From Stachybotrys elegans (lineage: Eukaryota; Ascomycota; Sordariomycetes; Hypocreales; Stachybotryaceae): a stretch of DNA of 64,000 nt. The stretch spans positions 868,001-932,000 of the forward strand of contig JAGPNK010000012.1 of assembly GCA_020746835.1 (NCBI GenBank). The letters run 5' to 3'. The translations under genes were made by a program, and so were the position numbers. Every line of letters starts with the position of its first letter. Within the stretch, counting starts at the first letter, position 1. The notes beneath the pieces were generated by a model that worked only from the letters and a program-made list of their open reading frames with translations, was not told where the DNA came from and searched no databases. Positions 13,157-35,430 of the stretch are shown here, one piece after another.

Positions 13157-16100
13157 CTATTGCCCGGCTTTCTTAGTAGCCTTAGTTCGCAGCTTCATCA
13201 TCAGGAAGACAAGCGCAAATGAGCTCACGCAAAACAGAGCCGTGATGCCAACCTGGAACAGTCAGTATGATTCGTCGGCAGCTGCAAAGTGACAGTACTT
13301 ACATCTCTCCAACCATAATACTTCTCGTTGATGTTCATCGCCCGAAGATATTCGGCCCCTGAACTGTAGGCACAGTATGAACATCCGTCGGTGGCTGATG
13401 GATCAGTCAAGTAGCCTCCATTCGCCGAGATGAAATCAGCCATGTAGTCGCCGCACGTGGTCCCATTTTGAGAAGAGAAAGGGATTCTGGCAAGCTCGTT
13501 TGCTTTGCACTCCACCTGGACATCCCAGACCACGGGCTCCAGCAGGCCTCCAATCAGGTACGTAAAAGGGTCGAGGTAGTAAATCCAGTAGCGCCAGAAA
13601 GGCTGGATCTGGGAATAGGGTACCACAACTCCACAGAAGTTGATGAGACCAGCTCCGATGAAGATTGGGTTGGCCAATGCTGCGAAGTAGTCGTTAGGCG
13701 AATAGGCGGCAATTGCTTGACCGATGGATGTATAGAGAAATTCGTAGACTACAACATGTCAGTGCCCGAACAATAAGAAGTATTTTCCGCGACTTACGCA
13801 ACATCTGCAAAAAGACTTGTCCAGAGATGCTGGCCTTGACCGGGAATCCCGCCGTAAAATACCAACAGCAGAAGTAGATGACTGCACACAGAATCAAGAC
13901 AGGAATCTCTGCCAGCAACTGAGCCGAAATGAAAGCAAACCAGTGGTACGTCTTTGACTTCTTTTCCCTCGTCTCAAAGAGATCTCGGTTCTTGATGAAC
14001 AGAGGCTGCGACTGGCTGATGCAACCAACAGCGACGAAGACGAAGTTGAAGACGGCCATGAGACGCAGCTGCAGATCGAATGTGCCATTGCCAATCATCC
14101 AGAACGTGAAACCGGCGAAGAGGGAGTTGGAGATGTGAATTCCAATCTTGTTCCAAATGTAGTCGGGATTGCGCCACAAAGCGATCAACTGACGGATGGT
14201 GACCAGCTTGAGCTGGTAGAGAAGAGGACTGGCAAAGTCGCTCACACCGTTATTGCTCTCTTCATCCATCGTTTGAGCTCTGGCATCTCCAAGATCCTGC
14301 TGAGAGTTGAGGCTCTCAATCTCGGCCAGCACATGCACCTTCTCTTCCGACTGGTTCCAGAGGCTGGGCCAATCAATCTCCTTGTTGAGCCTTCCTTGGA
14401 TGACATCAATGATGTGCTCAGCAGGATTCGTGTCCTCGGTTGCGTGAGCTCCATGCTTGGCGAAATACTCGAGAACCTGGCAAGAATTCTTGCCAGTTGG
14501 GCCAAAATACGTCGTCCTCCCTTCCTTTCCAAGAAGGAGCAGCACGTCAAAAGCCTCAAACAGCGCCGCAGAGGGTTGGTGGATGGTGCAGATGATGGTT
14601 TGTCCCGACATGGCGAGTTTTCGCATAAACCGGCAAATCTCGAATGCTGACTGGCCGTCAAGACCAGAGGTAGGTTCATCGAGGAAGAGTAGTGACGGTC
14701 GGGCCACGAGTTCTGTAGCAAGAGTCAGGCGCTTTCGTTGCTCAATAGAGAGTCCAGATCCAGGCACTCCGATGATAGCATGCTTGAGAGATGTCAATTC
14801 GAGGAGATCCATGATCTGCTCGACGTATGCCACCTTCTCACCATCCGGAACATCATGAGACTGTCGTAGGCGTGCTGAGAAAAGAAGAGCTTCGAAAACC
14901 GTCGCTGTGGGCTCGTGCACGTCATTCTGCTCACAGTATCCGGTGGTGCGCTGGAAACTGACCCCCTGCGGCTTGCCATTGACCATGATGCTTCCGTCAA
15001 TGTGCCCACTGTCTTTCCTCTGAGCCAAGACATCCATCAGGGTCGTTTTGCCTGCCCCAGAGGAGCCCATGAGCGCGACGAGCTGACCAGGCTTGACGTA
15101 TCCAGAGACGTCGTGCAGCAGCTGCTTCGGTTTTCCATCGTGCTGCACTACGTAGTTGATGTTCTTGAACGTGAAGGTTGTTTGGTGGTCAAGCACGTCA
15201 CTTCGTGGCTCAGGGGCGGCCTGAATCTGGCTTTTCTCCAGGTCGTTCTTTGCAGCAATCTCTTTCATCTGGCTTCGACGATCGTACAGAATCTTTGATC
15301 CAGCCTCTGACGCCAGGTTCACTTCGAAGCCGATGGCTGTCGTGATGGAGAAGAAGACCCAGAGGGCAATAATGATGCCCACGTTTCTCCACACCTCTGA
15401 GCGAGAGATGTCGTACTGAAGCTGAAGATACTCAGCCCCATCAATTGTGTGCCCGTCAGCAGAAGAGCCAAGGACGGTGCAGCTTTGCAGAGTTTGGTCG
15501 GTGTATGCAGGTCCAAATGGAACGAGCTGCGGCGCCACGCACGCCATTTCTCGGTTGGCAACCTCGCTAGCCATAACAGCGGCAAAGGCATAGGTAGCAG
15601 GATTAATGTATGCGATCCAGCGGAACCAGGGATGCATGCTTGTGACCGGAATCAGATACCCTGCCAGGCTAGTCAGTCGTCTGTCTGTAGTGTATCATCT
15701 CGGGCAGCGTCTTACCAGCATAAACCATCATCACCATGGTGACCCATCCGGAGATTTGCGCTGCCAAGCCAAAATGCTTGCACCATGCACCGATGGTACG
15801 GTATAGTGATGTGAAGCAAAGGGTAACGACAAAGTAGATGAACCAGTTGGTGAAGAACTTGCCAGCATCGTGCTGATATCCCACCATGAAGTAGTAGACT
15901 AGGTTGAATAGGCTGAACATAATGATGGTGAAGGGAATGTCGGTAAGAACGCATGCCAGTGCATAGGCGCTGGGTCGGTTGAAGGCCAGTCGCTTGTGAC
16001 GGGTAAGGATAGATCGTCCTCTGAACGATGCCACCGTTTCAGCCATCTTGTTCAACCCCCACAGCATAATGGGATAGAAGAGGGCGCCCGGTATGCGGAA

Positions 16101-17515
16101 GATCGATGTGCTGTCATCTGGAAGGTTGTACATGAGACTACCAGTGACAAGAGCCATCAGGAGCGAGGATGCCAGTTGAAGTCCATTAGAGAAACGATCT
16201 CCCCAAAGGATTTCCAATTGTCTAGTTCAATCTCAGTCGACTTGCATGCTTGTTTTGATCAGACTCGGGAACTTACCGAATGCTGCAGATCCAAACTTGT
16301 CTCGCAAAGGATGCAGTATATGGACTGGAAGCCCCAGAAGGCAACCGGAAGCGGGAGGCTGATTTCTCAGAGCTCGAGTCCGTCACCTCGCTGGCTGTCT
16401 GGTTGGCTGACTTATTTGGAGGGGGCAGTGCCTTGGGCGACATGCGCTTGAACATGTCGCTATCCCTGTACCGCCTCTCAAACTCACTCGCCGTGTCAGG
16501 AACACGGTCTTCGAATCCAGGCGCAATCTCTCGCTCAGTATGCACAGCGACAGAAGTCAGAAAGTCGGCAATGTTGGCGCCCGGGGGACAGATGAAGCCC
16601 ATATCCTCAAAGTACTTCTTTGCTTCCGAGGATGGTCCGTAATAAATTTGTCTGCCCTCGGCGAGGACGAGGACCTTGTCGAACTGGTCGTAGATGCCGT
16701 TACCAGCTTGGTAGAGAGTGGCGATAATGGTCTTGTTTTCTTCCATGGCCGACCTTCGAAGCACGCGGGCGAATTCGAGGGCGCTGGAGGCATCGAGACC
16801 CCGTGTGCTGTTGTCCCAGCACTGTAGAGGCGCCTGCGTGCTGAGAACCTCTGCCAAGGAGACGCGCTTCCTCTCGCCGCCAGAGACACCGCGCACGTAC
16901 TCGTTTCCTACCATGGTGTCTTTGGTGTGAGCTATGCCGAGAGACTCGAGGATCTGAGTCGACGCGGACTTGATTTGATCCTTGGAACTGGTCGATGGAA
17001 TCTTGGCTGAATTCGCAAACTCAATCGTCTCAGAGACCTTGAGCGTAGGAAAATGCAAATCATCTGGGTCATGGTAAGCATGTGATTAACAGATTGGCAT
17101 TGGGCGAGCAGATACCTTCAGTGTTCATTACTATTTTATGGCGAAGCTTTTTTGCCTCTTCGGGCCCCATGCTGTCGTAGAAAATCTGACCATGTACTTG
17201 GTTGAACTCATCTCGATGGTTTGAGAGGACCTTCAGGAGAGATGTACACCCGGAGCCTGGCCGTCCAAGGACAAGCATCATTTCTCCCGGGCAGACGCGC
17301 CCAGTCACGCCTTCGAGGATGTTCCTCTTTGGGGTGGCCTTTTTCCTGAACGGAATCAAGTCTTCCACAACCGAAAGACATGTTGAACCAAAGTCTTCAC
17401 CCAAGCCGGATACTTCAATCCCCAGGTCTTCGAAAGTGACGGTAATGCCGTCGCTTGTAGCGGTCTCGGCACTCCCAGCGGTGCCCTCGCTGTCTGACGG
17501 CTGGAATTCCTTCAT
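13157..17515 (-). CDS. Full-size ABCG (PDR-type) transporter
   Basis: About 1,350 residues in six exons, NBD1-TMD1-NBD2-TMD2. The start MKEFQPSDSE at 17515 gives an N-terminus of about 60 residues before NBD1, shorter than usual in PDR pumps. NBD1 has the PDR hallmark degenerate sites: Walker A GRPGSGCTSLL (Cys for Lys), signature GVSGGERKRVS and Walker B CWDNSTRGLD (Asn for Glu neighbour). NBD2 is canonical in Walker A (GSSGAGKTTLMDVL) and Walker B (LLFLDEPTSGLD), with the degenerate signature LSIEQRKRLT. TMD1 includes QLEILWGDRFSNG and several hydrophobic helices; TMD2 ends with LVFLMMKLRTK. Introns sit at about 17068, 16265-16218, 15715-15660, 13797-13750 and 13302-13256. The last exon stops at TAG 13157-13159. 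It lies divergent to TF1 and shares its CGG-array promoter. Inferred job: export of the cluster product, possibly self-protection. Confidence 0.92.
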
Positions 17516-17941
17516 CGTACCGGTTTGTCTACAGCATATACACTGGATTACGATTCTACGGGCACGGCTCATTCTTATTGTGTTTGATGTCCGAAACGAT
17601 GGCCCGTGGTTATCTACGCGGGATGGCGGGTTTGCGGACTTACGGATATACGGATTTGGAAGCTTCATGATGACTGCGTCAGTTCGGCTGCACCTATGGG
17701 GACTTCCGGGTTTAGCGTGTCGATCAAGCACAACTCGATACTGGTCTCCAGGCAATGACAGTGTTATTCATCAGTGCCCATGCGGCTAGTGGCCAGAAAC
17801 GGGACCTTGCTGGGCCCAGGTGAAAATTTGGTTGGGCCATGACTCTGCCTGGTTTCATGGTTATCGTCAGCAGCATTTCCGACTGTCCCGATCTCACTTT
17901 CTCCCAAATCCGCGTACTCTACTTCTGCGCCGAATGGAAAT
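17516..17941. promoter_or_regulatory. Bidirectional promoter, ABC transporter / TF1
   Basis: 426 bp between two divergent start codons; no coding content. Contains the phased CGG array listed separately. Confidence 0.7.
17619..17653 (+). promoter_or_regulatory. Five CGG triplets at exact 8-bp spacing (Zn2Cys6 half-site array)
   Basis: CGG occurs at 17619, 17627, 17635, 17643 and 17651 on the plus strand, giving four consecutive CGG-N5-CGG direct repeats with units CGGGATGG, CGGGTTTG, CGGACTTA and CGGATATA. Gal4-type zinc-cluster proteins recognise CGG half-sites with a factor-specific spacing. A matching array lies in the TF2/SDR promoter (23757-23795). It lies 288 bp upstream of the TF1 ATG. 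Confidence 0.65.
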
Positions 17942-20139
17942 ATGACCCAAAAAGTGTCCAAGGCCTGCGAGCCCTGCCGAGGGCGCAAGATACGCTGCAG
18001 TGGCTCTGTCCCCTGCCAGCGCCGAGAATGCAAGGCCGATCCGCAGGTTTGCGTCTATCGGTTAAAGGCGCGGAATAGGCAATCCCAGAAGCAAAAGCGA
18101 CTGCTTGGTGATGCTGTGGCGTCGCCATCGCCTCCCATCAGCCTTGGACCGTCTGTTCAGCCACAACCCCGAGACAACAACGACAAGGAGGCCGAACATG
18201 AGACGCAGCCCGAAGTCCACCACAGCGTCACAGAGTCTCACCTTTCACCGAAGCCGACGGACAGTTCACAACTCTTCTACGGCCCATCCTCCAATTTTGC
18301 GTTCGTCCAGCAAGTGCACCGAGCCATCGTCTCTACCTCTCACAATGGCCAGGCGCAGAGCCACGACGGAGTGTCTGGCTTGGACACCTTTATGATGCGA
18401 TCCATATTCTTTGGAACCCCCTCCAGAATAGACCCGGAAGCCATCAGATCCCCCAGCGTATCTTTGGAAGTGGTGCACAAGAGCCAGGCCCGAGAGTACC
18501 TCGAGGCGTTCAAGACAACGTCTCACTATCGACTGCCATTTTACACCGTCGCTGAGCTCGACTCGCTCTTTGAGACGCTGTACGACCCGCGACTTTCACA
18601 GGCGATAGCGCCTCAGACCAAGGCTGCTTTTCTGGCCATATTGGCAATCGGTGCACTCGCTACGCCACATACCAATGTTGCCGAGACACTCATGATGCAG
18701 GCAAAGCGAGAGGCCATAGTTCTGGACGATACCGTCAGTCTGAGGATGGTTCAGCTCTCCATCCTGTTCGCCGATTACCAGATCAACCTGGGTCGTCCCA
18801 ACTCAACCTACCTGCATTTGGGCGTGGCATGTCGGAAAGCCTTTGCTCTGGGCCTGAATAACGAAGTCTTTGCTACGCGCCAAGATGAGGCGACCGTGGA
18901 CAAGCATCGCACCACTCTATGGCTGCTATACTTTTACGAGACGTGAGTACATGGCAATACAGTAGACGCCTCATCCACTTACTGACAGGTCTTCAAGATG
19001 CCAGTCTCTCACGTTGGGACGCCGTAGCTCCCTCAAGTTTGCAGACATTACCTGCTCATTCCCAGCTCAGCCGTCTGCTGTCGCCAAGCTTGCAAGTATC
19101 GCTCGAATAATGGAAGACACGTTCGATTCCATGTATGGGAAGAGGGCAGAGAACATCAGGCAGCTCTTCACCACGGCTGAGCGTCTGTATTCTGAACTAA
19201 ATCGCTTTGCAGAGACGCATAACATTGCCTTTGCCACACGGGGTAAATTTGCTCAGGATGCGCCGTGCGATTTTGAGTCACTAACATTCCACAACTGTAA
19301 GTGTCAGGGCTATTTTTGTTGATGGATGTATTTGACCTAACATGAGTAAAACAGTGTATTATCATACTGTCCTTCTTATCTTCCGCCCGTTCCTTGTGGC
19401 CGCCTACGCATTGCAAACCAGTCGCCAAACAAAACATATCACACAGATGTGGCTCCGACAAGCCTGTCGGCATGCAGTTGATGCAGCTCAAGATTTTATC
19501 ATCTACGCCAGTAATACGATATTAAACTCTCCTCTCGCAGGGGTATGTAGCCGTCACTACGAAGGCTTAAAGAAATATGCTTACGAAATGATTGCTTGCC
19601 AGACTCTTCGATACCAAGCGTTCTTCATCGAATGCTGCTGCGCAATCTTGTTTTACGATATGCTATGCGAGCCCACAAAGTACAGTTACCACTCGGAGTA
19701 CATCAAGAAAGCCGTACAGACGATGCAGTCCATGGTGCAGGACGAGCCTGTGACTACGTGCATCAACTCGATCCGCCGCATCCAGGAGGTGATCAAACTT
19801 TCCATTTCCAGGCAACTGCAAATAGAGGTGCCCCCAACTCAGACACAAGCGCCATACCCCGTACACATCCATGCCGATAGTCTTGTTCCTCAAATTGGCG
19901 CGACGGGTGGTGCTGGGACGGAGCAGATGATATTCTTGACCAACGGTGCTGCAGATATCACTGATGAGAACTGCGGCCCTCTTGCTGCAGAACTTGACGC
20001 GTTAACAGATCAAGATTGGCTGAATCCCAACCACTTCAACCTCAACGTCATGACGACGGACTTGTTCAACTACTTCCCTATGGATTCATCGACTCCCAGC
20101 ACAGGGCAGCCAAGTGCCCATGACTATGCTAACCTGTAA
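17942..20139 (+). CDS. Zn2Cys6 transcription factor TF1 with fungal-specific TF domain
   Basis: About 680 residues in four exons. The N-terminus carries a zinc cluster, KACEPCRGRKIRCSGSVPC followed by QRRECKADPQVC. Its fourth-to-fifth cysteine spacing is four residues rather than the usual two. A Ser/Pro/Gln-rich linker follows, then the middle homology region (LPFYTVAELDSLFETLY, MVQLSILFADYQINLGRPN, HKTTLWLLYFYET-like). Introns: about 18943-18988, about 19297-19352 and 19543-19602; the last is 60 nt and leaves the frame open, but GTATGT, GCTTAC and CAG mark it as an intron. The tail is acidic and Asn/Ser-rich (possible activation region). Divergent from the ABC gene. Expected to bind CGG half-sites as a pathway regulator. 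Confidence 0.88.
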
Positions 20140-20773: not shown

Positions 20774-22218
20774 ATGGATGCCCTCGCTCTCGCCAACCAG
20801 CTCGAGGCTATTTCAGCCAATCCGGAGACTATCACCGCCCTTAGTGATGATAACACACGCAGGCGACTGTGCGAAGCAGCTATGAAACTTAGCTTGGCCT
20901 TGGAGGCTGGTGGTGACTCGATTCATAGAATCACCAATGCGGTATGTCTATTCCGCCTTCTTTAGCGGATAAGATATCTAGTACGGTAACGGAACTAACG
21001 TCAACCTACTTAGCCCCTGGAGCTTGCGTTATCCCGTGTGGGAGCCCAGTGCGGATTGTGGAAGACTCTAGCACAAGACGATGCATCTGCGTCCTTCACC
21101 CACCAACAGCTCGCTGCACAGACAAACGTGGATCCTGTTCTTATGAGTATGAACCCATCCTACGATTACCGCTGGCCTGTTTCTGACTATCAACCTAGAG
21201 CGCTTGCTTCGATACTACCAGTCGAAGGGGATGGTTAAACAGACTGGTCCCGACTCTTACGAATCCAGCAATGTTACCAAGGCTCTGGCTACTCCTGGTG
21301 GAGCCGGTGGTATTGGCTACTTGTGAGTCAAAGACGAGGAGGCCAGATCATGGCTGGATGTTCTTTCATTGAAAACCTAATTTTTATCAGCGCTGAGATG
21401 GTCTACCCAGCCTTGATGGGCATTCCCGAGTTCCTACGGAAGACAAACCATGCCAACCCGACTAACCCCGACTATTGCCCCTGGCATGTCGGGCACAAGA
21501 CAGACGAGTCGCCGTTTGCTTACCTTGGTAAACGTCCCGAGATGATGGAGTTCTTCCTGCCTTGGATGGCCGGCCAACGTGATGGCATGCCTGCCTTCCT
21601 GGATGTGTTTGACTTTGAAAAGGAGGTCGGCATGGGGACGGATCCGTCAGTCCCGGTATTCGTTGATGTCGGCGGAGCAATTGGCCACCAATGCGTTCTT
21701 TTCAAGGAACGCTACCCAAGCTGTGCTGGACGCATTGTCCTGCAAGAACAGGCACATGTCATCGACCAAGTCAAAGCCGCTCCACTGCCAGGGTTTGATG
21801 GCATCGAGACGCAAAGCTACGACTTTTGGGGGCCCGAGCCGCTTCACGGTAGGATACTCTCTTTGCTTAGATCAACAGATAACGCTGACCAAATAAAATT
21901 GCAGGTGCCCGCGTATACTACCTTCGAAATGTGCTACACGATTGGCCTGACCACAAAGTGAAGGAGATCCTTCAGAACATCAAGGCTGGCATGTCCGAGG
22001 ACTCCGTGATACTTATCGATGAGATGGTTCTGCCGGACGAGGGCACTCCTTGGCGTGCTGCTGGGCTGGACATGGATATGCTGGCTTGTCTTGCCGCCTC
22101 GGAGCGAACTTCCGAGGAGTGGAACAAGGTCATTGATGACGCTGGACTGGTCTTGGTCAAGAGCGTTCAGTATACGGTGCAGTGCAACGACTGCATTCTC
22201 ATCTGCAAACGAAAATAG
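20774..22218 (+). CDS. SAM-dependent O-methyltransferase (Methyltransf_2 family)
   Basis: About 395 residues in five exons. Start MDALALANQLEAI at 20774. Introns lie at about 20943-21012, 21149-21210 (ATGA|GTATGA to CCTAG, giving VLMKRLLRYYQSKG), 21323-21390 and 21849-21904. The N-terminal part is the winged-helix dimerisation domain (LELALSRVGAQCGLWKTLA). The catalytic half has the SAM loop VFVDVGGAIGHQ, the LQEQ region, and the late motifs YYLRNVLHDWPDHK, ILIDEMVLPDEG and the GLDMDMLACLAASERT segment, with the histidine-aspartate pair of this family in LHDWPD. This is the fold of fungal polyketide O-methyltransferases (sterigmatocystin 8-O-methyltransferase type). Inferred role: methylation of a hydroxyl of the cluster product. 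Its stop lies only 81 bp from the TF2 stop (convergent). Confidence 0.9.
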
Positions 22219-22299
22219 ATTGGATCAAGCGTTTGTCGGGAGTCTGTAACTAGAATGAGACTGTTGCCACATCATCACATTTGATTGCATTGAGGATGC

Positions 22300-23556
22300 T
22301 CAATACTGCGCTATTTCCTGACGTCCAAAAGCAAGCCACTCATCCAACGTCTCCTTGCCCTTTCCATATGCCAGGAGTACTAGCGCAAACTCGTCGGCAT
22401 CCGTAGGTATAGCTACATCCATGAGTCGGTATAGGCCCTTGCAGAAACGAGGTATGTCAACAGTGCTTTCGCTTTGAATGCACGCCAGCCATGCTTGATG
22501 ACACAACGAATCCCAGACGCCGCTTCGGCAAGTGAACCCAATGCTACCAGGACACATGGAGAAACCTTGCTTCTTGATGAGAAACGCGGCTTCGGTCAGG
22601 GTGGCAAGGATCCATACTCGCCGTATGGATTCGGATAGGATCCATGCCTTCCAGGTGGAGGCTGGGGTGTTATGCGCACGCAGTTGGGTTATTTCTGGCT
22701 CATTTATTGATTCTCCTGGGCTGGGACTCGGGCCAGACGCAACATCTATCGCAGCTCTTCTCATGGCCGCATCGCACCACTTCACAAGGGTAGATGAGTG
22801 TGTCTCTGCCTGAGAGCGAGCTCTAATGTCACCGTCAAAGAGGCAAATCATTTGAAAGATGAAGAGCGTCTGTGTGCGACTCAAGTGGGTGATGAGATCG
22901 AGGGCGTCGTCCTCTATTCCTTGATAAATCGACTGCTCTTGGACGAGGTTCCTGGACCACCTCAGGGCCATATCAATCGCGATTTTTTTGTTTGCCGACC
23001 CTGTTGAAGCTCGGTATGCCAGCCACGTTGCATATGCATACTGCAGTGGTGCAGGTAAATTGGTGCCGTAGAGTCGCTGATGGATAAAGGCACAGTGGTT
23101 TTCCCGCGTCCACTGATCCAGCCACTTCTTAATCGACCCAAGAAAGTAGTCAATCCCCGAGTCGGGATACGTGATGCGGTTATCATCAAGATCATCGCTG
23201 TCAATCTGCCACGAATCAAACTTTAGAAACCACAGGTTCTGCAGATCCAGGCGGGCTGCGCGCGGCGTGACAGGGCCAGGTGGCCCGCCGAGAGACAAGG
23301 AGCCGTCTGGAAGCAGCGGGCTGACAAGGCTGGCATCGGATGTGCTCAGATCATGCCGAGCTGTGCCATTCGTCAAGGACGTGGCCGAGGACGAGACCAT
23401 GGCGACAGTCACGGGGTACGCGCAGTCGAGCTTCTTGCTGAGACATCGGTGGCAGGCCGGAAGATGCTTGCTGCACCTGCGCTTCGCCTTGCTGCAGGCC
23501 ACACAGGCGGCTTGCTTCTGTGCTTGCGGCTGTTCGTCGCTTCTTGTCTGCGTCAT
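22300..23556 (-). CDS. Zn2Cys6 transcription factor TF2 (AflR-like)
   Basis: Single exon, 418 codons. The frame is open to 23652, but the first ATG, MTQTRSDEQ, is at 23556. The zinc cluster is canonical (C-x2-C-x6-C-x5-C-x2-C-x6-C): CVACSKAKRRC then SKHLPACHRC and LSKKLDCAYP, residues about 18-48. The rest lacks an obvious full Fungal_trans domain but has helices typical of cluster-embedded activators (LSRTQTLFIFQMICLFDGDI; ILSESIRRVWILATLTEAAF). A small single-exon zinc-cluster protein next to an O-methyltransferase and PKS fits a pathway-specific activator of the AflR kind. Divergent from the SDR at 24018. Its promoter holds the second phased CGG array, so it may control itself, or be controlled by TF1. 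Confidence 0.88.
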   Translation of the reverse strand: MTQTRSDEQPQAQKQAACVACSKAKRRCSKHLPACHRCLSKKLDCAYPVTVAMVSSSATSLTNGTARHDLSTSDASLVSPLLPDGSLSLGGPPGPVTPRAARLDLQNLWFLKFDSWQIDSDDLDDNRITYPDSGIDYFLGSIKKWLDQWTRENHCAFIHQRLYGTNLPAPLQYAYATWLAYRASTGSANKKIAIDMALRWSRNLVQEQSIYQGIEDDALDLITHLSRTQTLFIFQMICLFDGDIRARSQAETHSSTLVKWCDAAMRRAAIDVASGPSPSPGESINEPEITQLRAHNTPASTWKAWILSESIRRVWILATLTEAAFLIKKQGFSMCPGSIGFTCRSGVWDSLCHQAWLACIQSESTVDIPRFCKGLYRLMDVAIPTDADEFALVLLAYGKGKETLDEWLAFGRQEIAQY

Positions 23557-24017
23557 TTTTTTCTTGCTGTGCTTGGTAATGGAAATGAGAGCCAGCGACT
23601 GACGTCGGGCAGTGATGACATGATGGCGGGGATTTCCCGCCCCCTCCCGCACCGATGCTAGTGTTATGTGTAGCTAATGCGGGCAGTGTTTCCTCGTCGG
23701 ACCTGAACATCTGACGAATTGCTGCTTACGAAATATCGGCGGGCTGCGGGCATCTACCGCCAGCCCGCCAACCCGCCCGCACACCCGCATGTCCGCCCGC
23801 CGCCAGCCTGGTTGCGTGAAGACGGCGGAAACTTTGAGCAAAGAACTGTATAAGCAAGCAATGGAATCCTAGATTCTATAAATGAGGGCTGTTCCTCATG
23901 CCTTTTCATGGTACTTGCCTCATCAACATCCTCATTGCAACATTACGCTCCCATACCATTTAATCCCACATTACAGACTTGTTCTACCAAAGCAGCCAAC
24001 AGCTGAACATCGCAACC
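23557..24017. promoter_or_regulatory. Bidirectional promoter, TF2 / SDR
   Basis: 461 bp between divergent start codons. Besides the phased array (23757-23795) it holds a palindrome GGCGGGGATTTCCCGCC at 23625-23641 (CGG-N7-CCG), further GCGGG boxes, and TATA-like TCTATAAATG at 23875 in front of the SDR. Confidence 0.7.
23757..23795 (-). promoter_or_regulatory. Second phased CGG array (8-bp period, minus strand)
   Basis: Plus-strand CCG starts at 23757, 23765 and 23773, then 23777, 23785 and 23793: two runs of three CGG triplets, each at exact 8-bp spacing, offset by 4 bp. Read on the minus strand the units are CGGACATG, CGGGTGTG, CGGGTTGG and CGGGCTGG, close to CGGGATGG and CGGGTTTG of the ABC/TF1 array. 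CGG points toward TF2 (ATG 200 bp away); the SDR ATG is about 220 bp away on the other side. Confidence 0.65.
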
Positions 24018-25026
24018 ATGAGCATCCCAACGCTTCAAAAGTACCACAAGGAGTCTTATCCCTACATCGCTCCCAGCCGACCTGAGATCAGCCAGTCGGG
24101 AAGAACGGTAGTAGTCGCAGGCGCCAGTACTGGCATCGGCTTTGCTATTGCTCGCGCTTTTGTTGATGCGGGATCTAAGCGGGTCATCCTCCTTGGCCGC
24201 CGCCAGAATGTGGTTGAAGACGCAGCTTCCAAGCTTAACACATCGGGGAACAATGTTGCCGAAGGAAGAGTGGCCGACATGGCTGATGGCGACAGCATCA
24301 ACAAGCTTTGGTCCGACTTGCAAGCAGAAGGCATCTACGTTGATGTTTTGGTGCTGAGCGCAGCAGCGATGGGGAAGTCTGTGCCTATTCTCGAGGGTGG
24401 CTCGGGGAGCACTTGGGCCGATTACGAGACCAATGTCCGCGGCCCGCTCAATATGACTGAGCGCTTCTACAAGCAGACTACCGGCCAAGGGCAAAAGGTG
24501 TGACTACAAATACAGCCCGGCGCGAAACACAACTAACTTCTAGTTTCTAGTTTCTTGTTAATGTCTCGACTATCGCCATCTACATGTGGACCACAATGGG
24601 TCCGGAACGGCCAACATACGGCTTAACCAAGGCTGCTGGAACCGCTCTTGTGCAACAGATTGCCAAAGATACCAGTTCAGATGACATGCAAATCGTCAGC
24701 TTCCATCCCGGTGGTGTGCTCACTGAGGCCTCCAGAAACGTTGGTTACAACGAGAATATGGGGATTCGTTTTGACGACGGTAAGGTATCCGAGTCCCAGT
24801 GGTAGCAATGACTGACATATGTTTTGCAGAAAACTTGCCTGGCCATTTTGCCGTGTGGGCAGCCAGCAAGGAGGCCGCTTTCCTACACGGACGCTTTGTC
24901 TGGGCCAACTGGGATATGGAAGAGATCAAGAACGGACCAGTGGGCGAAAGGATCCAGAGTGATGAGCATTACCTCAAGGTCGGCATCGAGGGTCTGACTG
25001 AGAAGACTGGTGGCGCTCAATTCTGA
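24018..25026 (+). CDS. Short-chain dehydrogenase/reductase (cluster SDR)
   Basis: About 295 residues in three exons. The frame is open from 23979, but the first ATG is at 24018 (MSIPTLQKYHKESYP). Rossmann NAD(P) loop VVVAGASTGIGFAIA (TGxxxGxG type with A for T); LGRR after beta-2 suggests NADP(H) preference. Catalytic serine in VNVSTIA and YGLTKAAG for the Y-x3-K pair, then FHPGGVLTEA. Introns: about 24498-24543 after GQGQK and about 24780-24828 before ENLPGHF. The C-terminal LPGHFAVWAASKEAAFLHG... is shared with the SDR at 46359, including the intron just before LPGHF. Probable ketone/alcohol redox step on the cluster product; substrate unknown. Confidence 0.88.
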
Positions 25027-25200: not shown

Positions 25201-28200
25201 CTACGAGACTCCGATACTGGTCCTCTCAGTAATCAAATCCCCCAAACCTATGATAGATATCCCACTCATGATGTCAAAAACCGCCACATTTGCCTTAAAG
25301 TCCTTTCCGATCCAGTTCCGCAGCTCAACGGCCATCAAGGAGTCCACCCCAAAGTCCGACAACGCCTTTCCTGGCTCTATATCGGCACTTGAAACACCAA
25401 GAGCACGAGCTAGCCTGGCCACAACAGCTTGGACGACAATAGCTGATCTGTCGCGAGGTGTCACTGCCTGCGCAAACAATATTGCCGGGTTGATATCCAG
25501 GTCACCCCGATCCTGCTTTTCATCTTCCACGAGAGAGAACCCAGAAAAGAAGGGCTGTTGCAGATACGGCGGTATGCTCCCATGCTTTTTCATCATTTCA
25601 GCAGGGGTGAGCCCGCCGACAATGACTTGTGGTCTCTGCTTATGCTCTCCTCGGCAATATTCCCCAATGACTGCCAAGAGTTCCTCGGTTTCAACTTGGG
25701 CAAAGTTGTCTTGCTGCTGTCGCTTTCGCTGATACTCCTTCATCTCGGCAATGATACCTACCGTTCTCATCCACCCAAGATTCAGGGACGCAGTGTTATC
25801 CCCCTGGGATGCTCGTTGGTTGGCAAGGGCGTCTTGGAATGTGCAGCCTGCTGCGTAGTTTGACTGTGAGATGCTTCCGTACACACCGGCCACGGAAGAC
25901 AGAAGGATGAAGAAGTCGAGTGTACCAACTGGAAGGAGTTGGTGAAGGTTCCATGATGTCTTGATCTTCGAGTCGAGGGTCGTTGTCCACATCTGGTGCG
26001 TCATGTTCTCAAATACGGCGTCTTGAAGAACCATGGCGGCGTTGATACACCCCTTTACCGGGGGCATTGTGTTGATGAGGTCTGCCATAATCACGGACAA
26101 ATCCGCAGCTGATGAGACGTCGCACTTGACGACCTCAACTCGCACCCCCTTTTCCTGCAATTGCTCCACAGCAGACAAAGAGGACTTCGAGGTAGACGAA
26201 AGTCCTGATCTCGAAAGAACAATCAAGTTCTTAGCTCCTCGATCTGCCATCCAGGACATGATTGCACGCCCAATACCACCCAAGCCTCCCACAATGAGGT
26301 AAGACACATCTGACTTGAGCTTCCAGTCAGAAATAGCACGAGTGTGTCTCTGCAAATATAAATCAGCAACTATTCCTTTCAGCATGTCACTCTAGTCTTA
26401 CCTTGACCATGTCTTCATGACTTGAAGTAAGTATGATACGACCTGTAGTTTTGCCACTCTGCAGATACCGGAAAGCGCCTTCCACATCTGACATGGGATA
26501 GAGAGCCAGTGGAGTTGGAGGTTGGACCACACCCTTGTTGATCAGTTCAAGGGTTGCCAGCGATATTTCCCTGGTGAGCTTCTTGTTGTAAGAAAAGCAC
26601 TGCCAGAGGTCAACGGCCATGAAGCTGATATTCTTGGCAAAGATGGACATGGGCAGCATCGAGTTGCCCATGATATCCGCTTTTCCAATCTCAATAAAAC
26701 GGCCGAATGGTGCCATGCATTCCCAGGATGCAACCAGGCTCTTCCCTGAAAGCGAGTTGAATACGACGTCAACCCCCTCGCCCGTCATTCTCTTGATACC
26801 AGCAGCAAATGAAGTACCTCTACTGCTGAAGATGTGGTCTTCGTCAATACCAAACTCATCCATCAGGAACTTTTTCTTGTCAACATTTCCAACTGTGACA
26901 AAGATCTCTGCACCGATTGCCATTGAGATGCATAGTGCCATTTGGCCAGTCGCACCAGCGGCGGAATGAATCAAGATCTTCTCATTCTTCTGCAGTTTTG
27001 CCTTGCAAACCAACCCGTACCACGCTGTCATGCCTGGATTCAGGGAGGAGACCGCATTCTCGAAGCTGACACCGTCGGGTATCCTGTGGACGTGATGGCT
27101 GAGGGCTCGCGGGTACGTACGCATGCAGCCATTCGTGCTGACTATAGAGACAACCCGATCGCCAGGTTTGAATGGCTCAGAAGCGACACCATCCGCATCA
27201 ACCTGTCCAATAGCGGATCCCATGCGGGTAACAACTCCTGCACACTCAATGCCAGGGGTACTGTACTCCATGCGGCCCAATGCCGTGAGCAGGTCACGGA
27301 AGCTGAGAGGCCAAGCCTTGGCCTCCATCTCAATCTCGTAAGGGGCCAGCGGTGTGTCGAGATTGTTCGTCAAGTCTTCCACAAATGTGATCGAGTCTAA
27401 AAGTCCAGGGGTTTTGACTTTGAGTTCCAAGGCAGGTCCAGGGAGCCATTGCTCTACCCTTGATGAAGGGGACACTTGATGATAGACTGTGTCATTGAGT
27501 TGGATTTCCTCGACCATCCTCGGAGTTTCAAGCACTCCATTCGCCAATCTCCATTCCAATTCTCCTATTTGAGAAGAACAGAAGGTCTCTAGAACGGTGT
27601 CAATACTCTCTGCGAGCTTCTTCCTAGCCATTTTGTCATCGGCGACAACCAAATGGCAGTTAGAAAGAGACTCTGCTGCCAACGTGACAATATGTTTTGA
27701 TGAATTTTCGGTTCTGAGGGCCCTTAGAAACCCTTTCATCGTGCTGTAGTACGGGTATTTTGCATCGCTGATCCCCGTTTCGGTTACCCACAAGATGTTG
27801 CTCAGCTCTGACATCAGCCTTTGCAGACTTGTAAAGGTTGAAACTGGTATATCTGCAAGCCAGTGGTTGCCGATCTCAAGCAGCATGACAAAAACAGCAT
27901 TACTGTCTGAGAAAGTCGAAGGAGCATCACTTTGGCATTGGTCTTCAATGTCGGACCAGTTCACAACACTTGCGCCACGCTCTCTCCATCCAGAAGTCAT
28001 GAGAATATGAGCCAACTCAACTTGTGCAGGAGCACCACTGTCTATCACAAAACAGGGCCTGATAGAGGAGGCAAAGTGATCGACGGATACCCCGTTTTGC
28101 GCAAACTGGGCGGGACTGTCTGGTAGGCTTTCGACTTTCCTGCTGACCATGAGGCTAGCAGTATGGGCGACATCACTTCCGTGATCTCTGATCGTCAAAA

Positions 28201-31200
28201 TACTCTCTGAGAATCCAGTCTCCCTGAAGAAACTGTTCCACTGCGTCTCAGTGAGCAGGGGGCTCCGTGATCGCCATTCCTCCGTGCTAAGCCACCATCC
28301 TTCGAGCGACCCGAAGCCGACATTACCACAGGCACTAGTCGGGCAAATCAGCTCGAGAAGGATAAGGTAGCCGCCTGGCTTAAGGAGCTGCCGCACGTTG
28401 TGCATAGTTTTGGCGAGATTATGCGTTGCATGCAGAACACTTCCAGCAAAAATGACATCGTAGGCACCCAGTTCGAAACCTTCATCTGAGTGGGAATCCT
28501 TCTCGAGGTCCAAGGTTCGGTATGTCATGCGGTCCCCGAAATTGGCAAATCTTTCTCTCGCAGGCTCGAAGAACCCTGGAGAGATATCTGAGTAGGTGTA
28601 GTTTGAGAAGCACGACCTCCCCTTGCGCTCCGTAATTTCTTTAAAGGTAGAAAGAACCTGTTGCGTCATGCCACCAGTCCCAGCGCCGACTTCGAGGATA
28701 CGAAGACAGGGGTTCTCGTGTGAGAGCAAGTCCAGAAACGCCTCGAATCGATCGTCCCACACAGAGACGAAGAAGGAAGTGTAGAAGTCGTCCATAAGTC
28801 TTGAGCTAAAGAGAACCTCTACTGCATTCATGTCCCCACGGACGATGCCTTTGAGATTGCGAGCCACGGCGGGAAACATTGCCCAGTCGGGCTTATCTCT
28901 CTCGCATTGCAGGAGAAGCTTCTCTAGATCATCTTCGCTGATGATGTCCTCGGTCGCAGTAGCCTCATCTGCAGCATAGTAATATCTCAGTGACTCGACA
29001 AGTCTCGTTATGTAACTCGGTGCTCGCTTGAGTGCGTCAGGTCCAACCAGCTGAGGGTCTGCCAACACTTTTCTGGCTGCTATAGTCATTGCTCGTTCTA
29101 TCCTTGGGTAGAAGTCAAGGATAAAGAACTTGTCAAACTCGAGAGGTTTGAAGTTGCTCAAGTATGTATTGAGCTCATCTGGGGACAAGAGGCTGAGCTG
29201 TGGCTTCCATTCGATACTGTAGAGCAGCTTTTTGGCATTTTGAGCGTCGTCTGGAGTCCCGGTGCTGTCAGCACTCGTCACTTCTGACATACGACATTTT
29301 CCAATATTAAAAAGCACAGCTCCATTTCCGTCCAGCCCAAATACGGTACTTTCCCTGGATCGTTGCTTCAATGTTGTCTTGTCGGCTATACTCAAAATTC
29401 GTATGTGGGAGGCATCTTGAGATGGTGGGACTTCAAAGAGATCAGACGAGATCCAGGTGTCATCAAGGCCTGACAGCACCATTGTATTGCTGGCATCTGA
29501 AAGGCCTTTGGTCATTTGAACAACCATGACATGTAGAGATGCATCCAATACGGCCGCAACAGGATGCAAAGGGTATTCCTTGGGCGATTTCGCTGAGGCC
29601 GCGCGATTGATGCGTGCAATGACAGAGGCACGACCATCCCAATGGATATCTTCGAGCAGTGCAAATGCATCGAGGTAAGTGAGATCGACAGTACTGGACA
29701 GGAATTTGTAGAACTCATCCGCTGCGAATGGCTTATTATCGGTTGCGGCGATCTCATCATACTGCGAATGCAAACGCTGACGCTGCAACTTCTCCTCCAG
29801 ATCATGGTGAAAGTCGGCCGATGAGTCTTGCTTAGTAGCCACCTGGATGATGCAGCGAAAGCATTCCTTCCAGCGTGAGTTTTCGTCACAAGCAAACAGC
29901 TGAATCTCGGAATGTCCTCGACTTCTGCCTTCGCCTTCACCAGCCATGGGGCGCAAGTGAACAATAGTCTCAGTGCCCCCCTGGTTGACTTTACTGATGA
30001 GCACAGGACTGAGGAACTGGGCTTCCTTGACCCAGAAGCCCGTGATCTGGCGACTTGCCGCGTCATTTGTGGATACATAATGCTGCTTGGCGGCCTCGAT
30101 GGCCATCGTTACCATGCACGTACCCGCGAGAACGGGGACTTGGTTAACTATGTGATCTGCCGTCCACGGAAGGCTTGAGACATTGATAAAGTTTCTCCAT
30201 CGTGGCTCCAATGGGTTCCAGTCATTCACAGGCGTTCCAAGAAGCGCTGTGCTGCCGTCGCTGGTCTCTGCAACGCTGTGGCGAAGCCTATACCCGACAC
30301 TTGTGCGTGATTCGTGCCAGTACTTGCTGGAACGATCGAAGGGGTATTTTGGCATATCCGTTAGAATACGGATGGAGTTTGAAGCCTTGGCTGCCCCTGA
30401 AGACCCATTGAGCTCAGCTAGGCGTAGCTGTCTGTTGGCTGCTGAGATTGACACTGGCAGCCCGCGACAAAAGAGAGCGCCCACGAGTTCTAGGGTCGAT
30501 TGAACTGGGGACTTGTTTCTCATGAGCATAGAGTGGTATCTTATGTGCTTGTTCGTCATCTCGGATGACTGTTTGCCTTGAAGCGTACCATGCAAAATAT
30601 CTTGTACCGGTCGGCGTAAGGCTGCATGAGGACCAATCTCGATTATATCAGTGATACCTGCAGATGCTTCGTCGGAATGCTTTTGTGCTCCCGCAATCTC
30701 AGTTATGGCACCGAGGAAGTTGACGCGAGACACGAGATTGTCCGCCCAGTATTGTGGTTTGCGCAGATCTGCGGGCTTGATTGCTTTGCCGGTGACGGAA
30801 GACACCATCGAGGCCATTTGGCGTTGTCGACGAGGTCGCCCTGCGCCTTGTTCGGCTCCAAGTACCTGACTGAGCAGCTCAACATACTCGCCGGCAATCT
30901 GTTGCATAGCAGCGGAGTGGTAGGCGACCCCAGTGTTCAACTTTTGAGCAAAAACTCCTTGCTCGTCGAGCTGGGCCTTGAGGATGTCGATAGACGATTC
31001 CGCGCCAGAGAGTGTACAGTTGAGCGGGCTGTTGATGCAAGCAACACTCACACTGCCGCTGAGGAAAGCAGTCTCCCCAAGCGTAGAAGTTGTTGTTGCA
31101 ATGTACGCGATCGCTTTTTCCAGTGACAAGTTGACCGACATCATCGCCCCAGCGGCATGTCCCGCGCCTTCTTCCTTGAGTCTAGCTGTCAGCTTTCCTC

Positions 31201-33780
31201 TGTAGAAAGCGATTTTGACGGCTTCCTCCAGTGATAAGGCACCTATCGCATAAGCAGCTGCGATTTCTCCAGATGAGTGACCAACAACGCTGGCAGAAGG
31301 AACTCCAAACTCCTTCATAAGTTCCACCAACGAGATTTGAAGAGCCGTGCAGAGGGGTTGACTGTAGTCTGGTCGATTGATATTGGCCTTGTCATCCAAT
31401 GCCTCTACATAAATTGATAGTTAGCCTTGAGCCCACTCAACGCGGAGCACCTTGCTTTCAACTTACCGAGTACCGACCAAGTAGCGCCCAGAGAAGCAAA
31501 GACATCATCAATTCGGGACAGAGTTTGCCTAAAGACCTCATACTGCAGTAGCTCGAGGCCCATACCAGCGTACTGCGCTCCTTGGCCAGTAAACACAAAC
31601 ATAGTACGGCCAGGTGCGAGTGAAGATCGTTCGGGTTTTGCAAATGCTTCGAGCTCTCTTTCAACATCTGTCCCACCTACAACGGCAAACGTACGCCATG
31701 CGAGGTGAGTTCGACGATCAGAAAGCGTAAAAGCAAGGCGCCCAAGCTGGGCGGGGGAACCCATGACAGAAGAGCGATGATAGTCCTTGAGGTTCTCGAA
31801 CACGCGGCCCATGGATGCTTCGTCAGCCGCGGACCAAACAAGCAGTCTTCTTGGACTTGTGACAAGATCTGTTGAAGTAATTGACTTGACAGCAGATGGA
31901 AGATTTATAGAAGACTCAAGGGACTCTAGAATATTCCCATTTGTTGGATGTGTCGGAGAGACAGGTGTAAGGCGGCCATCTGATGTTGGAGAAAGAGAAG
32001 ACCATGATTCGCTGTCAAGGCGAGGCGTGAGCTCACACTGATGGTGTCCGTTTAAACCCGCTGAAGAGAGGTATGAATATGCATCATCAAGAATGGCATG
32101 GGCATTGGTACCGCCCATACCAAAAGAGTTGACGGAGACACGTCTGACTCCTGATGACGGCCAGGGGACGCATGTCGTAGGCACCTTGTGGAGTATTGTC
32201 AACCCCCATGCTGTTAATTCACCACGATGGGCTTTCACGTACATGTAGATTGTAGAACTCCGCGTCAATGTCGGGATTCAGCTTTTCGAAGAGAGCAACT
32301 GGCGGAATTATTCCCTTTTCAAGTATAAGAATGGCTTTCACTATTCCGGCGAGTCCAGCACCACCTTCAAGGTGCCCGACGTTGGATTTGATAGACCCCC
32401 TGATTCGTCAGCTAACTTCCATTTTCTCTCACATATCTTTGAACTTGGGTTCAGGGAGTTTTGGAAGTCAATAAATGTAAGGGGTAAGCTTACACATAAA
32501 GAGGCTCATCCGAGGATCTGGAGCTTCGAAACACCCTCCCGATTGCCTTCATCTCGATTGGATCTCCTGTCGGGGTTCCGGTGCCTTTATATCATTAGCT
32601 GGTTGAGATATTCCTAGCTCTAATTAGTAACCCACCGTGAGCTTCAAAGTACCTTGTGCTGGCAAAGTCAAGGCCGGCTCTCTGATAAACCTGACGAATA
32701 AGTCTTTCCTGTGCTTCACTGCTAGGCTGTGTGAGGCCAGGTGTATGTCCATCCGAATTGGCGCCAGTGCCACGGATGACTGCCCTGATCATATCACCGT
32801 CTTGAAGAGCGCTGCTCAGTGGTTTGAATATCATGGCGATGATACCTTCTCCTCTAGAGAACCCATTTGCTCTGTGATCAAAGCTATAACAGAGGCTGTC
32901 GGGTGAGAGGAATCCTTGGTTAGCAAGGCCCATCGAGACCTCTGGTCCAAGGATTAAGTTGCACCCTATGACTAAGGCCTAGGTACGTAAAGGTCAGATC
33001 TTATTCTACCCGCGCACATGGTTCCCATTATGTCGGTTGATATGAACTAGAAACGTGTAATGCGACGTACCGATGAGGAAGAACCACTTTGAAGCGACTG
33101 GCATGCCAGATCTACCGCCACCAGGCTGCTGGAACATGCGGTATCAACATGTAAGCTTGGGCCTTGAAGGCCGAAAAACCAACTGACTCTGTTGGACCGC
33201 ATGCTATCAGCTGTGCCTGTGATTCGAGAAAGTGGTGCAGTGTCGGGATCCTTGCTCATCGATTTTGTATAGTCATCCGAGGTTGAGGCATCAAAAACCC
33301 CCATTTTCATGCCCTTGAGGCTTGACATGCTAATTCCAGCTTAACCACAATTAGTCGGACTATCATTCTTCAAACGTGAGCACCCTACCATTTTCAAAGG
33401 CGTGGTATGACGTTTCCAGAATCCAACGCTGCTGCGGGTCCATCCCGGCGGCTTCATTCTGAGTCACGGAGAAGAAGGGAGCATCGAAACATGCCGGGTC
33501 ATCTTTGATGAAATGGGCACCACGTCCAGGAAGCTTAGGGGAAGGTGTTAGAGACGAAAAATCCCGTAGCGTGTAAAAGGTGTACGCAGGGTTCGCAGGA
33601 AGACAGCCATACCAGATGTGGTTTTTTGTGGTCTTTGTGGAACGAGTTTATGTTGGTTCGGCTCTCTGGGTACTCAGTCATCAGGTTCTTACGATCCCTC
33701 AGAATGTCCCAGAGGCTGGACTCATCCACAGCCTCCTGGGGCATCTTGAGGGAGAACCCTATCACTGCAATTGGCTCCAT
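25201..33780 (-). CDS. Highly reducing polyketide synthase, KS-AT-DH-MT-ER-KR-ACP
   Basis: About 2,680 residues in nine exons. The frame opens upstream, but the first [13 protein letters not shown], is at 33780. [10 protein letters not shown] (Cys codon 33136-33134), EAHG, and [12 protein letters not shown] after splicing. [16 protein letters not shown] and GHSSGE (Ser codon about 31276). [13 protein letters not shown] plus LDASLH; the HxxxGxxxxP motif reads [10 protein letters not shown], losing the usual Gly and Pro. C-Me[14 protein letters not shown], intact. [11 protein letters not shown] and [11 protein letters not shown], intact-looking. [11 protein letters not shown] with [32 protein letters not shown] near 25343, close to the C-terminus. 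There is no TE or C domain, so release needs a partner, probably the FSH hydrolase sharing its promoter. Introns include 33400-33350, 32256-32190, 31465-31402 and about 26400-26350. The product should be a reduced, C-methylated aliphatic chain; exact structure is not predictable here. Confidence 0.95.
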
Positions 33781-34603: not shown

Positions 34604-35430
34604 ATGCGTTTTCTTTGCCTCCATGGCATCGGGATGAACGCCCAGGTAGGCTGGTTATGCATACACATACAATCGGTGACTCATTGACCTTTTCGTCACT
34701 AGATATTCAGGTCCCAAATGAGTGAGTCGAATCGCCATGCGACCGTGTCATTTCTCAAAATATAGGCTGATGACCTGAAGGCCAGATTTGTTCAGCGTTG
34801 GGCTCCGACAATTCGTTTGTTTTCCTCAATGGATCTGTCGCTACCAAACCATTGCCTGGTAAGCGAGACACCAAGTTTGCATCGCGCCACTGATAATCTT
34901 TTTCGATAGGCCTTGAAGGACAGTATGGTGGGCCTTATCTACGGTTTGGCCCAAATGAAGGCGGTGATTTCTCTGCTGTTCCAGATCTTATTGAGGACCT
35001 CCTTGATCAAGCAGCGGCAGAAGGGCCGTTTGATGGCATCATAGGATTCTCAGAGGGCGGAGCGGTTGCGGCAAATATGATGATCATGGATGGTCAGGAC
35101 GATCCGCCGTGGTGTAACTTCAAATGCGGCATCTTTTTCTGCGCCTTGACTCCCGTTGACATGACTTCGATCGCTCGGGAAATGAGGAGTCTAAGCCAGG
35201 CCCAAGATGGCATTCTTTTGAAGGTTCCAACAGCGCATATCTGGGCTGAAGGCGGCGATCAGTATCCTGATATGGGGCGAGAGCTTGTTGACTTATGCGA
35301 TGGGGGGCTACGGGAGGAAGTCATTCATTCCCTAGGCCACGAGATACCAGGTTCGCGGTCAGATGAGTTCCTCAGGGACACAGTTCGCGCCATAGAACGG
35401 ACTATTGAAAGGGCAAAGGCACTGTCTTGA
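34604..35430 (+). CDS. FSH-family serine hydrolase (LovG-like PKS off-loading thioesterase)
   Basis: About 225 residues in four exons. MRFLCLHGIGMNAQ, then IFRSQM, then SQICSALGSDNSFVFLNGS, then LEGQYGGPYLRFG. I place introns at 34646-34702, about 34722-34770 (donor GTGAGT, acceptor TGAAG, preserving the family pattern) and about 34859-34911. The catalytic nucleophile is in GFSEGG; the acid lies around HIWAEGGDQYP and the histidine in SLGHEIPG, as in PF03959 serine hydrolases. Members such as LovG hydrolyse the thioester of a highly reducing PKS to release the free acid. Sharing a promoter with a PKS that lacks a release domain strongly suggests the same job here; the acid would then feed the A-T-R reductase (inference). 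Confidence 0.88.

What the first reader, a model, noticed from the sequence alone, without database searches (positions are those of the whole stretch)
23757..23795. Matching 8-bp CGG array in the TF2/SDR promoter, oriented toward the regulator
Two triplet runs (23757/65/73 and 23777/85/93 as CCG) repeat the 8-bp phase on the minus strand, with unit sequences CGGGTTGG and CGGGCTGG close to CGGGATGG and CGGGTTTG in the other array. In both promoters the CGG strand is the coding strand of the adjacent Zn2Cys6 gene. Arrays were not found in the PKS/hydrolase, O-methyltransferase or NRPS-like upstream regions. This suggests a two-tier circuit: arrays act at the regulators, pump and SDR, and a different signal acts at the core genes.
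Basis: partly seen in the sequence, partly recalled or inferred. Interest (0 to 1): 0.75.

Follow-up and report, generated by a model that had tools for sequence, protein, structure and literature searches.

The report
CGG binding-site arrays at cluster regulators
Two neighbouring promoters of a fungal natural-product gene cluster carry rows of CGG triplets spaced eight bases apart, most likely docking sites for the cluster's own zinc-cluster regulators; the spacing is one already known for such proteins, so this is a good regulatory lead rather than a new kind of system.

Summary
On the minus strand of the TF2/SDR promoter there are two runs of three CGG triplets with an 8-bp period, broken by one 4-bp step. 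The TF1/pump promoter has five CGG in one 8-bp register. The genome matches Stachybotrys elegans (43.4 Mb), and both arrays are single-copy there. Exact 4-triplet runs occur at 23 loci (window included), runs of five or more at 4. The slipped 5-triplet layout of the TF2 array recurs at one other locus, a tetranucleotide repeat. Spacers of the two arrays resemble each other more than background spacers (P about 0.004). Against this, 3-triplet runs are ordinary: 488 matches, fewer than the pattern read backwards, some beside unrelated genes. With CCG density allowed for, the TF2 phase is only moderately significant (P 0.005 for period 8; 0.065 for any period). The core-gene promoters lack the element. 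CGG-N5-CGG direct repeats are the published site of TerR, a cluster regulator, so the geometry is known. Best reading: a shared Zn2Cys6 site array giving auto- or cross-regulation of TF1, TF2, pump and SDR. Which factor binds, and whether a 'two-tier' circuit exists, is untested.

The parts
23757..23802 (-). CGG array of the TF2/SDR bidirectional promoter: two runs of three CGG at 8-bp period (23757/65/73 and 23777/85/93) with a 4-bp step between them, plus CGG at 23797 and 23800
17619..17653 (+). CGG array of the pump/TF1 bidirectional promoter: five CGG in one 8-bp register (CGGGATGG CGGGTTTG CGGACTTA CGGATATA CGG)
22300..23556 (-). TF2, Zn2Cys6 regulator of 418 aa, one exon, six zinc-cluster cysteines (C18 C21 C28 C35 C38 C45)
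   Evidence: Pfam Zn_clus E 1e-6; nine aligned homologs 40-81% identical
17942..20139 (+). TF1, Zn2Cys6 regulator of 677 aa in four inferred exons; six cysteines present with CX4C in place of CX2C
   Evidence: Fungal_trans E 2e-7; Zn_clus 17.2 bits, below the cut-off of 21; splice inferred by eye; six cysteines in 11 of 12 aligned homologs
24018..25026 (+). SDR (short-chain dehydrogenase), intron-containing
   Evidence: Pfam adh_short E 5e-16 on the first long open frame
13694..17515 (-). PDR-type ABC transporter (pump), several exons; ATG at 17515; 3' end not fixed
   Evidence: Pfam ABC_tran, ABC2_membrane, PDR_CDR; ATG position
20774..22219 (+). O-methyltransferase; no array upstream
   Evidence: Pfam Methyltransf_2 E 5e-18 on two joined exons; promoter scan
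25201..33780 (-). Highly reducing PKS with C-methyltransferase; no array upstream
   Evidence: ATG position
34604..35430 (+). FSH1-type serine hydrolase; shares the array-free promoter with the PKS; start inferred
   Evidence: Pfam FSH1 E 3e-14 on 34897-35430; start
9452..12858 (+). NRPS-like enzyme (adenylation, carrier, reductase) spread over two open frames; true start not fixed; no array upstream

Best explanation
The two arrays are clustered binding sites for one Zn2Cys6 regulator that reads CGG-N5-CGG as a direct repeat. The likeliest binder is one of the two regulators encoded beside them, TF1 or TF2. Bound at both bidirectional promoters it would regulate itself, the other regulator, the efflux pump and the SDR together; several in-register half-sites would let monomers or dimers line up and bind cooperatively. 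Shown here: positions, rarity, single copy, shared spacer bias, absence from the core promoters. Inferred: binding, identity of the factor, sign of the effect, cooperativity. Not shown: any separate control of the core genes.
For: 8-bp phase in both promoters. Runs of five or more at only 4 loci in 43.4 Mb; the slipped 5-triplet layout of the TF2 array at 2 loci, the other a tetranucleotide repeat; yet the two arrays lie 6.1 kb apart in one cluster. The TF1 array keeps CGG while its spacers differ (pairwise 0-3 of 5 identical; no direct or tandem repeat called). Spacers of the two arrays resemble each other more than random draws from 207 background spacers (P 0.004) or letter-shuffled ones (P 0.0015). 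Neither array region has another match in the genome. Both adjacent TFs have six zinc-cluster cysteines. Published precedent: TerR binds CGG-N5-CGG direct repeats in its cluster; a 4-nt spacer or inverted half-sites were not recognised (PMC4360782, passages). Zn2Cys6 factors that control PDR pumps and autoregulate are known: Pdr3, Tac1, CgPdr1 (PMC3997011, passages).
Against: CGG 8-bp runs are not enriched genome-wide: three-runs 252+236 against 684+630 for the reversed control, four-runs 13+19 against 61+69, the purine-bounded form 13+40 against 45+57, and one unit with flanks, up to one mismatch, 29+33 against 36+35. Runs of three or four occur beside unrelated genes and 3-runs in 3 of 60 stretches taken at other Zn2Cys6 genes. 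The TF2 array is CCG-dense and part of it scores as a weak tandem repeat; its phase is only P 0.065 if any period is allowed. TerR sites are in nearly all promoters of their cluster, core genes included, whereas here the core promoters have none. TF1's zinc cluster is non-standard. No orthologous promoter could be aligned.
Confidence: 0.6

Rival explanations
1. GC-rich low-complexity drift. The TF2 stretch is a degenerate CCCGCC-like repeat left by slippage; the 8-bp phase is incidental, and only the TF1 array, or neither, is functional.
For: Tandem Repeats Finder calls 23757-23777 as period 8 and 23763-23788 as period 12 with low scores, 35 and 38. Placement test P 0.065 for any period. 9 of 60 stretches at other Zn2Cys6 genes hold at least 6 CGG or CCG in 50 bp. 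Runs of three or four lie beside unrelated genes.
Against: The TF1 array has no direct or tandem repeat called. The arrays share spacer bias and each is single-copy.
Confidence: 0.25
2. The arrays are sites for a Zn2Cys6 factor encoded elsewhere, for example a pump or stress regulator of the Tac1/Pdr kind, which switches on the pump and both local regulators.
For: One array is 104 bp from the pump ATG with a TATA-like word between. CGG direct repeats control PDR pumps in Candida: DRE, CGG-N4-CGG (PMC10370356, passages). The first look for Zn2Cys6 domains gave 391 candidates in this genome, 150 of them scored.
Against: Spacing is N5, not N4. Of 20 array loci read, one (L012) has an ABC transporter gene, but with a 3-triplet run that is not in a clear promoter; not all genes of the 20 loci were named.
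Confidence: 0.15

Closest known systems
TerR sites of the terrein cluster, Aspergillus terreus (PMC4360782, passages read)
   Same: CGG direct repeats with a 5-nt spacer in promoters of one biosynthetic cluster; cluster-encoded Zn2Cys6 regulator; several motifs in one promoter (terA has three)
   Different: The TerR motif is in all cluster promoters except terG, terH and terI, core genes included; here it is only in the regulator/pump/SDR promoters, with five triplets in register. The TerR consensus TCGGHHWYHCGG differs: by eye 2 of the 8 spacers here (ACTTA, ATATA) fit HHWYH and neither has the leading T
Tac1 drug response element, Candida albicans (PMC10370356, passages read)
   Same: CGG direct repeat upstream of PDR-type ABC pumps; autoregulated factor (PMC3997011, passages)
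   Different: Spacer of 4 nt, two triplets, not a biosynthetic cluster
CLR-1 site CGGN5CGGNCCG, Neurospora (PMC5468973, passage read)
   Same: CGG-N5-CGG core
   Different: Adds an inverted third half-site; cellulose regulation
Pdr3 and CgPdr1 autoregulation through PDREs (PMC3997011, passages read)
   Same: Several sites of one Zn2Cys6 factor at its own gene and at a pump gene
   Different: PDREs are everted CCGCGG (recalled, from no call), not spaced direct repeats

Membership tests
CGG-N5-CGG direct-repeat site of a cluster-specific Zn2Cys6 factor (TerR-like site) | Two or more CGG in the same orientation with exactly 5 nt between | tested here: met
CGG-N5-CGG direct-repeat site of a cluster-specific Zn2Cys6 factor (TerR-like site) | A Zn2Cys6 gene encoded in the same cluster | tested here: met
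CGG-N5-CGG direct-repeat site of a cluster-specific Zn2Cys6 factor (TerR-like site) | Present in the promoters of the core biosynthetic genes | tested here: not met
   No CGGN5CGG in the PKS/hydrolase, OMT or NRPS-like upstream regions; best weight-matrix scores 9.1, 6.4 and 6.0 against a median of 7.8 for 800-bp pieces of 61 stretches at other Zn2Cys6 genes
CGG-N5-CGG direct-repeat site of a cluster-specific Zn2Cys6 factor (TerR-like site) | Bound by the cluster regulator | not testable with these tools
   needs a binding assay
Tac1/DRE-type pump element | CGG-N4-CGG spacing | tested here: not met
   TF1/pump promoter spacing is N5; no N4 pair listed there
Tandem repeat / microsatellite | Near-identical head-to-tail units | tested here: inconclusive
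   TF1 array: no tandem or direct repeat called. TF2 array: two weak calls, period 8 and 12, scores 35 and 38
Dispersed repeat or transposon remnant | Other copies in the genome | tested here: not met
   141-bp stretches around each array match only themselves at E 0.001; the tool skips simple repeats and very common words

The most novel reading that the evidence does not exclude
A dedicated regulator-and-export module inside a biosynthetic cluster: a register-locked array of five or more CGG half-sites on which a Zn2Cys6 factor assembles cooperatively, giving a switch-like, mutually reinforcing loop of two regulators, pump and SDR, while the core enzymes answer to a different signal.
Probability: 0.12. 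Interest if true: 0.55.

Novelty: new member of a known kind. Interest (0 to 1): 0.33.

Why it matters
Many fungal biosynthetic clusters are silent and the sites of their regulators unknown (general knowledge). A precise, short, mutable array beside two cluster regulators gives a direct way to identify the factor, wake the cluster and ask whether export and regulation are wired apart from synthesis.

Tried and rejected
Genome-wide enrichment of CGG 8-bp runs: rejected, the reversed control is commoner. Arrays as a general mark of Zn2Cys6 genes: not shown. I read 20 array loci of 9.5 kb, chosen by eye (8 of the 22 four-run loci outside the window; the other 12 are three-run loci). At least 3 of the 20 have a Zn2Cys6 domain in the stretch (L005 by motif; L012 by Pfam; L016 by the list); about 1.7 are expected from 391 first-look candidates, 0.7 from the 150 scored. 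My motif found only the first of the three, so 3 is a lower bound and a weak association is not excluded. Of 60 stretches of 1.4 kb taken at other Zn2Cys6 genes (60 of the first 63 rows), 3 have a 3-run at period 8; one of the 60 (L047) is, through the end of its contig, mostly the gene itself rather than its upstream side, and the stretches may hold coding sequence. A paralogous cluster with the same array: TF1 has no close paralog; TF2's nearest is 29% identical over 302 residues and 46% over the zinc cluster; the upstream regions of three TF2-like genes have no run of three, one of them (L082) has a single CGGN5CGG pair. L012 holds a TF2-like gene, an ABC gene and a 3-run, but the run lies about 70 bp beyond the 3' end of a minus-strand open frame. 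Hairpin at the TF2 array: a 9-bp inverted repeat exists but folding is no better than shuffles (z -0.87, 43 of 200 as good). The bacterial promoter scan does not apply to a fungus. A CGGATA word in fumonisin clusters was recalled; none of the 8 papers listed of 69 holds it.

Full report
What is there. The window is C4:868001-932000 of a 43.4 Mb genome in 61 contigs. The PKS of the window is 100% identical over the 900 residues searched to B0I35DRAFT_439590 of Stachybotrys elegans, on a contig of 1,493,002 bp, which is the length of C4. The organism is therefore most likely S. elegans (Hypocreales). The cluster runs from an NRPS-like enzyme (9.5-12.9 kb) through a PDR-type ABC pump, TF1, an O-methyltransferase, TF2, an SDR and a highly reducing PKS to an FSH1 hydrolase; its borders were not tested. 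The two promoters in question are bidirectional: pump/TF1 (17516-17941) and TF2/SDR (23557-24017).

The arrays. TF2/SDR: CCG at 23757, 23765, 23773 and at 23777, 23785, 23793, then 23797 and 23800, so on the minus strand two 3-triplet runs at period 8 with one 4-bp step. TF1/pump: CGG at 17619, 17627, 17635, 17643, 17651. No other period from 4 to 14 gives runs of three in both places. All eight CGGN5CGG spacers of the arrays begin and end with a purine (one search prints them); this pattern was read from the arrays, so it is not independent evidence.

Is it more than chance? In dinucleotide shuffles around each array the period-8 count was reached in none (TF1) and in at most 0.00025 (TF2) of shuffles; with any period from 4 to 20 allowed, at most 0.0004 and 0.0014. 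If triplet number is fixed and only places are redrawn, TF1 is 0 of 100,000 (any period 0.00003) while TF2 is 0.005 for period 8 and 0.065 for any period. Genome-wide, three-triplet runs number 252+236 (reversed control 684+630), so they are ordinary. Four-triplet runs give 32 matches (control 61+69), which I merge into 23 loci, the window's included; 4 of the 23 reach five or more: the TF1 array, a tetranucleotide repeat (C4:179784), a near-identical tandem (C59:1591268) and a G/A-rich run (C61:125478). The pattern CGGN5CGGNCGGN5CGGN5CGG, which is five of the TF2 array's triplets, gives 7 matches at 2 loci, the other again C4:179784 (reversed control 4+9 matches). These patterns were chosen after seeing the arrays. 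That two such rare arrays stand 6.1 kb apart is the strongest argument for a shared role.

Do the two arrays resemble each other beyond CGG? A similarity score (sum of the two mean best spacer matches, maximum 10) was 7.25 against a mean of 4.89 when four spacers were drawn from 207 background CGGN5CGG sites (18 of 225 dropped because the spacer itself held CGG; array sites excluded): P 0.0042; with both sets drawn, 0.0062; with letters shuffled among the TF2 spacers, 0.0015. The background comes from the window and 83 fetched loci, 20 of which I had chosen because they hold arrays, and two TF2 spacers are near-copies of each other (4 of 5 identical), so the P-values are rough.

Where else? 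I read 20 array loci chosen by eye. Several arrays lie upstream of open frames of unrelated genes: ECM29 (L004, three triplets), GH94 (L018, three), a sodium:neurotransmitter symporter family gene (L007, four), a rhodopsin-domain gene (L009, four). In 60 stretches of 1.4 kb at other Zn2Cys6 genes (84,060 bases) three have a 3-run at period 8, one of them partly a tetranucleotide and one a perfect tandem; one of the 60 stretches (L047) is mostly the gene itself. So a run of three or four alone means little; the full arrays are what is unusual. Each array region has only itself as a match in the genome, so neither looks like a dispersed repeat.

Core promoters. No CGGN5CGG occurs in the NRPS-like (8400-9460 taken), OMT or PKS/hydrolase upstream regions. 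A weight matrix from the eight array sites gives best scores of 6.0, 6.4 and 9.1 there, against a median of 7.8 and an upper quartile of 10.1 for best hits in 800 bp of 61 stretches at other Zn2Cys6 genes (the 60 above and L083). Outside the arrays the best match in the window is at 37984, score 14.1, inside an open reading frame. It does not prove a second signal: single triplets are present in all three regions, and TerR binds single half-sites as a monomer (PMC4360782, passages).

Orientation. The CGG strand is the coding strand of the TF in both promoters. But in pump/TF1 the array is 104 bp from the pump ATG and 289 bp from TF1's; in TF2/SDR 201 and 216 bp (positions). TATA-like words face SDR (23877, 75 bp from the array end) and pump (17536, about 80 bp), none faces a TF; by my estimate such short words are expected once or twice per promoter by chance. 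I therefore read the arrays as shared upstream elements of both genes of each pair.

Who binds? TF2 has a canonical cluster, kept in 8 of 9 aligned homologs; the ninth, P0002 from Colletotrichum somersetense, lacks seven aligned residues with one of the six cysteines, as a real deletion or a gene-model error. TF1 has six cysteines with CX4C, shared by 5 of 12 aligned homologs (Paramyrothecium, three Fusarium, Pleurostoma); 6 have CX2C, and P0029 lacks the domain in its model. In Paramyrothecium foliicola, homologs of TF1 and TF2 lie on contigs of different length (6,550,992 and 3,631,708), so the two need not be linked there. Nothing here tells which one binds.

Known or new? CGG-N5-CGG direct repeats are the measured site of TerR (PMC4360782), were sought under that form in the ter cluster of A. 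lentulus (PMC10512231, one passage), and form the core of the CLR-1 site (PMC5468973, passage). Pump control with autoregulation by Zn2Cys6 factors is known from Pdr3, Tac1 and CgPdr1 (PMC3997011, passages). The present case is a new member of a known kind, with more in-register triplets and an unusual set of target promoters. In the one search made for S. elegans (listing of 8 of 6,998) three listed papers hold all three terms and none by its title is about this cluster; that is no proof of absence from print.

Noticed in passing
window 17942-18060 (TF1 zinc cluster) and alignment A1: TF1 and 5 of 12 aligned homologs (Paramyrothecium, three Fusarium, Pleurostoma) have CX4C where 6 others have the usual CX2C; TF1 scores below Pfam's Zn_clus cut-off.
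   Followed up: partly
protein P0002 (Colletotrichum somersetense homolog of TF2): Closest TF2 homolog (78-81% identical) lacks seven aligned residues of the zinc cluster with one of its six cysteines: a natural loss or a gene-model error.
   Followed up: no
window 23738-23769: Perfect 9-bp inverted repeat GGCGGGCTG / CAGCCCGCC overlaps the start of the array, a possible alternative inverted site; folding is no stronger than in shuffles.
   Followed up: partly
L012 (G000:C34:752500-762000): A TF2-like Zn2Cys6 gene, an ABC transporter gene and a CGGAATGGCGGAATTGCGG run lie within 10 kb, but the run sits beyond the 3' end of an open frame.
   Followed up: partly
G000:C4:179784-179838: A long CGGG/CGGA tetranucleotide repeat on the same contig accounts for 7 of the 32 four-triplet matches of the genome.
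   Followed up: no
window 44040-45482: A third Zn2Cys6 gene with Fungal_trans domain lies about 9 kb beyond the hydrolase; no CGGN5CGG in 45483-46346 upstream of it.
   Followed up: partly
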